Made by a program: the position numbers and the translations under genes. This document shows, one piece after another, positions 5,530-14,205 of a stretch of 14,205 bases of DNA (positions are counted from its first letter, which is position 1; the number at the start of each line of letters is the position of its first letter). Under the pieces are notes generated by a model. It saw only the letters and a list, made by a program, of their open reading frames with translations, did not search any database and was not told the DNA's origin. The stretch lies in contig JAEUJR010001185.1 of the NCBI GenBank assembly GCA_016793585.1, positions 1 to 14,205 of the forward strand, in the 5' to 3' direction. The DNA is from Archangium sp. Lineage in GTDB: Bacteria > Myxococcota > Myxococcia > Myxococcales > Myxococcaceae.

Positions 5530-5691
5530 GTGACACGCTCGTTGGTCGTCTTCGCGCTCGGCGTCACCCTGCTCGTTTCTCCGGCGCGAGAGCTGTGGGC
5601 GCGAACGGACTCGGCGTTCGTCGCGTTCGCGGTCTGGGCGCTGCTGCTCGCGCTGGGCTGGTGGTCGGTGCGGCCGAAGGAGCGGCCATGA
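5530..5691 (+). CDS. Small two-helix membrane protein upstream of the SSS-type sensor kinase
   Basis: A 53-codon ORF from GTG 5530 to TGA 5689-5691. A GAGGG motif at 5520-5524, five bases before the GTG, is a good ribosome binding site. The stop overlaps the sensor-kinase ATG in an ATGA arrangement, indicating translational coupling. The product has two hydrophobic segments (about residues 4-16 and 29-46) separated by a charged loop containing SPARELWART, and a short basic tail. Topology, size and position resemble small DUF3311-like proteins encoded in front of sodium/solute symporters, although I cannot confirm membership. By analogy it may be an accessory subunit of the symporter-like sensor domain. 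The alternative is that it is only a leader peptide; the good codon usage and RBS argue for a real gene. Confidence 0.65.
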   Translation: MTRSLVVFALGVTLLVSPARELWARTDSAFVAFAVWALLLALGWWSVRPKERP

Positions 5692-13325: not shown

Positions 13326-14205
13326 GCCCGCTGCTCGCGACGTCGCTCGGTGAGCCGAACCTCACCTCGATTCTCTTCTTCTTCGCGTTCGTCAGCGTGA
13401 CGATGGGCATCACGTACTGGGCCGCGCGCAAGACGAAGACGGCGAGCGAGTTCCTCACCGCGGGCGGCAACGTCACGGCCGTACAGAACGGCTTCGCGCT
13501 CGCAGGCGACTACATGAGCGCCGCCAGCTTCCTCGGCATCGCGGGCCTGGTGGCGACGTCGGGTTTCGACGGGCTCATCTACTCGGTGGGCTGGCTCGTC
13601 GGCTGGCCAGTGGTGACGTTCCTCATCGCCGAGCCGCTGCGCAACCTGGGCAAGTTCACCTTCGCCGACGTGTTGACGGCCCGGCTCCAGCAGAAGCCGG
13701 TGCGCATCGCGGCGGCCTTCAGCACGCTCACGGTGATCAGCTTCTATTTGATCGCGCAGATGGTCGGCGCCGGCAACCTCGTGCGCATGATGTTCGGCAT
13801 TCCGTACGAAGCGGCCGTCGGCGCGGTCGGCGTGGTGATGCTGCTCTACGTGCTCTTCGGCGGAATGATCGCCACCACCTGGGTGCAGATCGTCAAGGCG
13901 GTGCTGCTGCTCTCGGGGGCCACCCTGCTCGCGCTGATGGCGCTCTCGAAGTTCGGCTTCAACCCGCTCGCGCTCTTCTCAGCCGCGGCGGATCAGTACG
14001 GCGCCGAGGTGCTCGCTCCGGGCAAGCTGGTCTCGAGCCCGGTCGAGGCCGTGTCGCTCGGCCTCGCGCTCATGTTCGGCACGGCGGGCCTGCCGCACAT
14101 CTTGATGCGCTTCTACACGGTGCGTGACGCGAAGACGGCCCGCACCAGCGTCGTGTACGCGACCGGCCTCATCGGCTTCTTCTACCTGGTGACGTTCATT
14201 CTCGG
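13322..14205 (+). CDS. actP: Cation/acetate symporter ActP (partial, N-terminal 294 aa)
   Basis: The frame opens at GTG 13322, overlaps the yjcH stop (GTGA), and stays open to the right edge, so the C-terminal half is missing. The visible 294 residues follow E. coli ActP closely in order: GITYWAARK, LTAGGN, the family segment GDYMSAASFLGI (D63 onward), DGLIYSVGWLVGWP, LIAQMVGAGNL, YVLFGGMIATTWVQI and LMFGTAGLPHILMRF. Several membrane helices are evident. The protein should import acetate (and other short monocarboxylates) with Na+ or another cation, supplying Acs. The N-terminus is shorter than that of E. coli ActP and lacks its cleavable-looking leader. Co-expression with acs and yjcH is almost certain from the overlaps. 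Confidence 0.95.
   Translation, partial: MSPLLATSLGEPNLTSILFFFAFVSVTMGITYWAARKTKTASEFLTAGGNVTAVQNGFALAGDYMSAASFLGIAGLVATSGFDGLIYSVGWLVGWPVVTFLIAEPLRNLGKFTFADVLTARLQQKPVRIAAAFSTLTVISFYLIAQMVGAGNLVRMMFGIPYEAAVGAVGVVMLLYVLFGGMIATTWVQIVKAVLLLSGATLLALMALSKFGFNPLALFSAAADQYGAEVLAPGKLVSSPVEAVSLGLALMFGTAGLPHILMRFYTVRDAKTARTSVVYATGLIGFFYLVTFIL

What the first reader, a model, noticed from the sequence alone, without database searches (positions are those of the whole stretch)
5530..14205. Self-contained acetate module pairing a symporter-fused kinase and NtrC-type activator with acs-yjcH-actP
Seen: an SSS-STAC-PAS kinase, a GAFTGA-containing activator, a sigma54-like promoter with upstream dyads, then acs-yjcH-actP, all on one strand. 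Known, from memory: CrbS-type kinases control acs in Vibrio and Pseudomonas through a LuxR/NarL-type regulator, while CbrA-type kinases pair with an NtrC-type CbrB. Inferred: here a CbrAB-like pair directly drives the acetate-switch operon through sigma54. That would be a rewired acetate switch in which the sensor domain and the effector transporter are members of the same superfamily.
Basis: partly seen in the sequence, partly recalled or inferred. Interest (0 to 1): 0.7.

Follow-up and report, generated by a model that had tools for sequence, protein, structure and literature searches.

The report
CbrXAB-like switch for acetate genes
A soil myxobacterium and many of its relatives appear to switch on their acetate-uptake and acetate-activating genes with a sensor-regulator set resembling CbrXAB, which reviews describe only from Pseudomonas and close kin, and the DNA site that the regulator probably binds can be seen.

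Summary
In detail: SLC5-STAC-PAS kinase (5688-8471), GAFTGA activator (8499-9833), sigma54-like site (10975-10990) and acs-yjcH-actP on one strand. Missed: a 53-aa CbrX-like ORF overlapping the kinase start, and a CPBP-protease gene between activator and acs. By trees, match to the solved CbrA structure 10ED, the CbrX partner and the DNA half-site, the pair is CbrXAB-like, not CrbSR-like. Acs follows it in 25 of 36 Myxococcota-type loci. A dyad GTTAC-N4/5-GTAAC (10804-10818), made of the half-site published for P. putida CbrB, lies upstream of the sigma54 site; in the nearest genome (9.5 Mb) it occurs once, there; in G013, where pair and acs are far apart, once, at acs. Of 20 sampled dyad regions in kinase-bearing genomes 14 lie at acs or porin-like genes, against 1 of 20 in kinase-less genomes. 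Against: two genomes with the pair have an acs without the dyad; one keeps the dyad without the pair. A gammaproteobacterial side clade keeps the pair beside acs but lacks GAFTGA and the sigma54 site. Direct sigma54 control is well supported by sequence, untested at the bench; the signal is unknown.

The parts
5530..5691 (+). 53-aa CbrX-like ORF with two hydrophobic stretches, stop overlapping the kinase ATG by 4 nt
   Evidence: similar ORF ending at the kinase start in 65 of 81 sources; Amphritea counterpart 58 aa
5688..8471 (+). CbrA-like SLC5-STAC-PAS-HisKA-HATPase sensor kinase, 927 aa, no C-terminal receiver
   Evidence: (10ED, E 8.2e-82), tree, K189 = CbrA K196
8499..9833 (+). CbrB-like NtrC-type response regulator, 444 aa, GAFTGA present
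   Evidence: 53% identical to the Amphritea CbrB reference; tree
9843..10793 (+). CPBP-family membrane protease gene, probably a bystander
   Evidence: PF02517 8.1e-12; among the 80 loci only in L118, the nearest relative
10804..10818 (.). Perfect dyad GTTACCCAAGGTAAC, proposed regulator-binding site
   Evidence: conserved in 18 of 22 sources; once in the 9.5-Mb nearest genome
10828..10842 (.). Second, imperfect dyad GTTTCGCTCCGTAAC, 24 nt downstream of the first
   Evidence: also in the G001 copy
10975..10990 (+). sigma54-type -24/-12 site TGGCGCGCTCGTTGCG
   Evidence: not beyond chance alone; conserved at the head of the acs unit in relatives
11032..13002 (+). acs, acetate--CoA ligase, 656 aa
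12999..13325 (+). yjcH, DUF485 protein
13322..14205 (+). actP, cation/acetate symporter, cut by the window end

Best explanation
A CbrXAB-like two-component system has acetate uptake and activation as its direct target. The kinase (transporter-like SLC5 sensor, STAC linker, PAS, kinase core, with a CbrX-like partner) phosphorylates the NtrC-type regulator, which binds the GTTAC-N4/5-GTAAC dyad(s) upstream of acs and, through its GAFTGA loop, opens sigma54 RNA polymerase at the -24/-12 promoter, so that acs-yjcH-actP is transcribed (in other myxobacteria a porin-like gene heads the operon, or acs, actP and porin-like genes are separate targets). Shown by sequence: gene content, homology to CbrXAB, recurrent linkage, dyad plus sigma54 pairs at the predicted targets, co-occurrence of kinase, regulator and sites. 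Inferred: phosphotransfer, DNA binding, activation. Unknown: the signal.
For: Same 5 of 40 relatives carry kinase and regulator orthologues. Acs downstream on the same strand in 25 of 36 Myxococcota-type loci. sigma54 site (at most 2.5 mismatches) between regulator and acs in 19 of 20 examined loci with intact acs. Perfect dyad in 18 of 22 sources. Dyad once in G001 (at acs), once in G022 (at yjcH-actP), once in G013 (at acs 7.6 Mb from the pair). 54 of 54 genomes with the kinase have a perfect dyad, 23 of 93 without. 14 of 20 dyad regions at acs, acs-like or porin-like genes in kinase-bearing genomes, 1 of 20 in kinase-less ones. Half-site equals the P. putida CbrB subsites TGTTAC/GTAACA (PMC6296734, passages). 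The clade that lost GAFTGA also lacks the sigma54 site at acs. sigma54 gene in 7 of 7 genomes.
Against: No expression or binding data. The window's sigma54 site alone is within chance. A CPBP gene lies between regulator and promoter. The acs of G022 (L076) and the intact acs of G012 (L083) have neither dyad nor sigma54 site though the pair is present. L133 has acs and dyad but no sigma54 site within 3 mismatches. G092 keeps dyad, sigma54 site and porin-like gene-yjcH-actP without kinase or regulator orthologue. In 6 of 20 sampled regions the dyad lies at neither acs nor a porin-like gene. In P. putida the subsites are described as non-palindromic and spaced by 12-16 nt, here they form a tight dyad.
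Confidence: 0.85

Rival explanations
1. The pair is a broad carbon or nitrogen regulator like Pseudomonas CbrAB, and acs is only one of many targets or is reached indirectly.
For: P. putida CbrB is reported to control at least 61 genes directly (PMC6296734, abstract). Imperfect sites were not searched genome-wide here. One of three G012 dyads lies by a transporter gene outside the acs set.
Against: Perfect dyads are very few (1 to 4 per genome in the 54 kinase-bearing genomes) and concentrate at acs, actP and porin-like genes; linkage to acs recurs.
Confidence: 0.1
2. The dyad and sigma54 site serve another NtrC-type activator, and the neighbouring pair controls something else.
For: G092 retains the site without the pair. 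Myxobacteria hold many such activators.
Against: Half-site identity with CbrB, recognition helix conserved from myxobacteria to Amphritea, co-occurrence in 54 of 54, and the same dyad upstream of 17 gammaproteobacterial kinase genes of this clade.
Confidence: 0.03
3. It is a CrbSR-type acetate switch: hybrid kinase, LuxR-type regulator, RpoD promoter.
For: CrbS also has SLC5 and STAC domains and controls acs (PMC5715377, passages).
Against: No receiver domain on the kinase and an NtrC-type regulator, sigma54 site, CbrX-like gene, separate place in the tree from five other SLC5-type kinases (no experimentally studied CrbS was in the tree).
Confidence: 0.02

Closest known systems
CbrX-CbrA-CbrB of Pseudomonas and Azotobacter
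   Same: Gene order cbrX-cbrA-cbrB with overlapping small ORF; SLC5-STAC-PAS kinase without receiver, with the Na2-site lysine; NtrC-type GAFTGA regulator; GTTAC/GTAAC half-sites upstream of a sigma54 site
   Different: Followed by acetate genes, not by crcZ; half-sites in a tight dyad; histidine-pocket positions differ (CbrA F248 = S226, Y75 = S68 in the window)
CrbS-CrbR (MxtR-ErdR) of Vibrio and Pseudomonas
   Same: SLC5-STAC kinase system that controls acs (PMC5715377, PMC5436829, passages)
   Different: CrbS has a receiver domain, CrbR is LuxR-type, the acs promoter is RpoD-type
RpuS-RpuR of Sinorhizobium fredii NGR234
   Same: SLC5-STAC kinase system that controls a carboxylate symporter gene, mctP (PMC9100948, search listing with title and start of abstract)
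   Different: An NGR234 plasmid kinase of this general type (not verified to be RpuS) falls outside the CbrA-like clade

Membership tests
CbrXAB | SLC5-STAC-PAS kinase without C-terminal receiver | tested here: met
   the kinase ends with HATPase_c.
CbrXAB | Small membrane ORF (cbrX) overlapping the start of cbrA | tested here: met
   5530-5691, 4-nt overlap; similar ORF in 65 of 81 sources by a criterion (38-90 aa, SP and W) chosen after seeing the first examples.
CbrXAB | NtrC-type regulator with GAFTGA that groups with CbrB | tested here: met
   the reference is Amphritea, identified by gene order, partly recalled; FastTree only.
CbrXAB | TGTTAC/GTAACA subsites upstream of a sigma54 promoter | tested here: met
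   Half-sites present with another arrangement; binding itself not tested.
CbrXAB | cbrB followed by crcZ (conserved gene order of Pseudomonadaceae) | tested here: not met
   Followed by CPBP gene and acs. Rfam gave no match in six sources, Amphritea included, so the RNA search itself says nothing. On this strict definition the pair is CbrXAB-like, not a member.
CbrXAB | Histidine-binding pocket residues of CbrA | tested here: inconclusive
   Y51, W55, F71, F406 kept (Y44, W48, F64, F392); S53 is T46, A56 is T49, C74 is V67, Y75 is S68, F248 is S226.
CbrXAB | Phosphotransfer and control of carbon use | not testable with these tools
   Needs biochemistry and mutants.
CrbSR | Kinase with C-terminal receiver domain | tested here: not met
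   No receiver in the kinase.
CrbSR | LuxR-type response regulator | tested here: not met
   Regulator is Sigma54_activat type.
CrbSR | Controls acs | not testable with these tools
   Needs expression data.
sigma54 activator (NtrC-type) | Receiver, AAA+ with Walker A and GAFTGA, C-terminal HTH | tested here: met

The most novel reading that the evidence does not exclude
CbrXAB is an old and widespread carboxylate switch, not a Pseudomonas invention. Its plainest circuit is direct sigma54 control of outer-membrane porin, acetate symporter and acetyl-CoA synthetase, and Pseudomonas later redirected it to crcZ and global catabolite control. In Granulosicoccaceae and kin the same acs-linked regulator lost its GAFTGA loop, and the acs promoter lacks a -24/-12 site and shows a conserved TTGA-N18-TA(A/C)ACT block instead: a promoter-class switch within one regulatory lineage.
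Probability: 0.4. Interest if true: 0.78.

Novelty: new variant of a known kind. Interest (0 to 1): 0.63.

Why it matters
[quoted passage not shown] Here a like set sits beside one pathway in many genomes, with a rare binding site, which makes signal, phosphotransfer, site and target directly testable in a laboratory Myxococcus. It would be a second way in which an SLC5-STAC kinase is wired to acs, with sensor and controlled transporter from the same superfamily. The clade without GAFTGA offers a natural comparison for how a sigma54 activator leaves sigma54.

Tried and rejected
CPBP protease as a functional part: rejected; among the 80 loci only L118, the nearest relative, has it.

sigma54 site directly upstream of acs in Myxococcus and Corallococcus: not found, because there the site lies upstream of an intervening beta-barrel-like gene. 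That gene is only weakly porin-like by Pfam: Porin_O_P below its cut-off for L158, no match for L173 nor for the other family seen in G022 (L115). 'Porin-like' is my label.

crcZ by Rfam: no match in six sources, the Amphritea reference included, hence uninformative. Support for a sigma70-like promoter in the eight acs-linked loci without GAFTGA is weak by shuffling: as good or better in 5 (L181), 18, 29, 58, 91, 157, 268 and 277 of 300 shuffles, and in L145, L149 and L189 the best-scoring pair was another one; the case rests on aligned conservation. Pocket residues suggest a ligand other than histidine, no more.

Limits: both trees are FastTree, with long-branch warnings, Amphritea among the long rows. 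Rows were counted by eye; the match list was cut, its genome rows were not. The 20 kinase-bearing regions are 20 of 91 perfect dyads in the 54 genomes (all of G046, G072-G076, G105, G109 and one of two in G097); the 20 kinase-less regions are 20 of 34. Four more kinase-less dyads (G025) had no hit to the window's proteins or ActP. Unused: two of three protein searches, both structure predictions, all viral scans.

Full report
What is there. The region holds, on one strand, a 53-aa ORF (5530-5691), a sensor kinase (5688-8471), an NtrC-type regulator (8499-9833), a CPBP protease gene (9843-10793), 238 nt without a gene, and acs-yjcH-actP from 11032 to the window end. The window's own assembly is not held. 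The nearest held genome is G001; its matching contig has the same length (33,074) as an Archangiaceae MAG contig found.

Kin of the pair. Kinase residues 4-558 match chain 10ED at E=8.2e-82; PMC13022988 (passages) gives 10ED as the SLC5-STAC part of Pseudomonas CbrA with CbrX. The lysine that fills the Na2 site there (K196) is K189 here, and lysine in 81 of 81 aligned kinases. There is no receiver domain on the kinase, unlike CrbS (PMC5715377, passages). As a reference for CbrXAB I used Amphritea japonica, whose plasmid carries gluQRS, a 58-aa ORF, the kinase, the sigma54 regulator, a gap of 570 nt, and pcnB-folK-panB-panC. The order cbrX-cbrA-cbrB-crcZ is from PMC6591292; the outer neighbours in Pseudomonas are recalled. 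The window regulator is 53% identical to the Amphritea regulator over 460 aligned positions. The regulator tree puts the 75 regulators of this study and Amphritea CbrB in one clade (local support 100) apart from 25 other NtrC-type regulators. The kinase tree separates 84 kinases, Amphritea CbrA included, from five other SLC5-type kinases (support 100). Both are FastTree trees with long-branch warnings.

CbrX. P. putida cbrX overlaps cbrA by 17 nt and is translationally coupled to it (PMC6591292, passages), and CbrX copurified with CbrA (PMC13022988, passages). A small ORF of like make-up ends at the kinase start in 65 of 81 sources.

Linkage. A scan of one genome for each of 84,980 species with the SLC5 part of six kinases gave 255 relatives, of which the best 80 were kept. 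The regulator follows the kinase in 72 of 80; several of the other eight contigs end too soon to tell. Of the 80, 36 are Myxococcota-type (one, L134, is labelled Comamonas but falls among Myxococcus). In 25 of these 36 acs lies downstream on the same strand, in three of them as a degenerate gene of 33-35% identity and in two (L151, L157) only after more than 6 kb; in two more (L184, L179) acs is divergent. Of the 44 gammaproteobacterial loci acs follows the regulator within 140-201 nt in eight, all Granulosicoccaceae, and lies 3-6 kb downstream in three.

Promoter. Where acs follows the regulator closely or heads its own unit, a -24/-12 site lies 42-63 nt before it (L118, L121, L154, L171, L176). 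In Myxococcus and Corallococcus a beta-barrel-like gene stands between, and the site lies before that gene. In one search, 19 of 20 loci with intact acs had a site with at most 2.5 mismatches between regulator and acs; L133 had none within 3; of three loci with degenerate acs one had it.

Dyad. GTTAC-N4/5-GTAAC occurs in 18 of 22 sources examined around these promoters. The other four have near matches by eye (L121; L154, L171, L176 with one half-site base changed). P. putida CbrB subsites are TGTTAC (forward) and GTAACA (reverse), described as non-palindromic and spaced by 12-16 nt (PMC6296734, passages). The Amphritea cbrB-pcnB gap holds three GTTAC and three GTAAC half-sites and a sigma54 site.

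Predictions and controls. In G013 kinase and regulator are 15 kb apart and 7.6 Mb from acs, yet the only perfect dyad in 13.2 Mb stands at acs with a sigma54 site, and two near-dyads with a strong sigma54 site stand at yjcH-actP. In G022 the regulator is followed by yjcH-actP with the genome's only perfect dyad and a sigma54 site between. In G010 a second acs and a barrel-like gene carry perfect dyads with sigma54 sites, and the linked acs a near-dyad; in G012 the three perfect dyads lie at the degenerate acs, a barrel-like gene and a transporter gene. Against the model, the acs of G022 (L076) and the intact acs of G012 (L083) have neither dyad nor sigma54 site. Of 12 acs loci from relatives without the pair (L069-L071, L074, L075, L077-L082, L084) none had a perfect dyad; L082 had a one-mismatch dyad away from acs. 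Among 147 Myxococcia genomes all 54 with a CbrA-like kinase (E at most 4.1e-210; the next matches are at 5e-117) have a perfect dyad, and 23 of the other 93 do. Genomes are not independent, so this is no probability. I then fetched 20 dyad regions from kinase-bearing genomes (of 91 dyads) and 20 from kinase-less ones (of 34). At acs, acs-like or barrel-like genes: 14 of 20 against 1 of 20. With a sigma54 site of at most 3 mismatches at 20-200 nt: 13 of 20 against 3 of 20. The one kinase-less case, G092, keeps dyad, sigma54 site and barrel gene-yjcH-actP without kinase or regulator orthologue: a recent loss, or another activator. In the 81 sources there are 64 perfect dyads against 2 expected in shuffled sequence; 31 of 64 have a sigma54 site at 40-180 nt, against 137 of 4860 random positions. 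A sigma54 gene is present in 7 of 7 genomes checked.

A side clade. 17 regulators of Granulosicoccaceae and related Chromatiales form one branch (support 100) and lack GAFTGA; in those shown the HTH is kept. Two further gammaproteobacterial regulators depart slightly from the motif (GSFTGA, GAFAGA). The eight with acs next door have no sigma54 site within 3.5 mismatches and share an aligned block GGTA(A/C)ACT, with TTGA 18 nt before TA(A/C)ACT in seven of eight; shuffle support is weak. Loss of loop and site in one branch is what the model predicts.

Reading. The pair most likely activates acetate uptake and activation directly through sigma54. By every sequence feature tested except the crcZ neighbourhood (and with pocket residues open) it is CbrXAB-like, a system that a review calls unique to Pseudomonadaceae (PMC8871633, passages). 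I found no paper reporting the myxobacterial pair or its link to acs; the searches were made, all in one open-access library. At least one gammaproteobacterial kinase already bears the name CbrA in a public record (P0061), so homologues outside Pseudomonas are not unknown to annotation. What the kinase senses is open.

Noticed in passing
L144-L147, L149, L161, L167, L169, L175, L177, L180, L181, L187, L189, L192, L193, L195: 17 CbrB-like regulators in one gammaproteobacterial branch lack GAFTGA; in the eight with acs next door the sigma54 site is absent and a TTGA-N18-TA(A/C)ACT block is aligned.
   Followed up: partly
L068:10190-11167 (-), genome G019: An ORF joins the first about 131 residues of the kinase to what looks like the end of the barrel protein that follows actP in G022: remnant of a deletion that removed the system, or a misassembly (by eye).
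   Followed up: partly
L065:55-1503 (-); also L152, L183: The gene after the regulator is an acs-like frame of 33-35% identity that in L065 has 482 aa and matches the AMP-binding domain only in its first third, while dyad and (L183) sigma54 site remain.
   Followed up: partly
L264, genome G092: Dyad, sigma54 site and barrel gene-yjcH-actP persist in a genome without kinase or regulator orthologue.
   Followed up: partly
L122, L123, L124, L129, L131, L135, L137, L138, L140, L163, L168, L172, L174, L188, L190, L191, L194: In 17 gammaproteobacterial loci a perfect dyad lies some 225-350 nt upstream of the kinase match, hinting at autoregulation.
   Followed up: no
L134: A record labelled Comamonas sp. 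KCTC 72670 carries a Myxococcus-like copy of the whole locus and falls among Myxococcus in both trees, so label or assembly may be wrong.
   Followed up: no
L061:13444-14556 (+): The nearest relative has an extra 370-aa gene of unknown family between the CPBP gene and acs that the window lacks.
   Followed up: no
L216, L217, genome G025: Five perfect GTTAC-N5-GTAAC dyads on one contig of a genome without the kinase, some in tandem; probably the site of another regulator.
   Followed up: no
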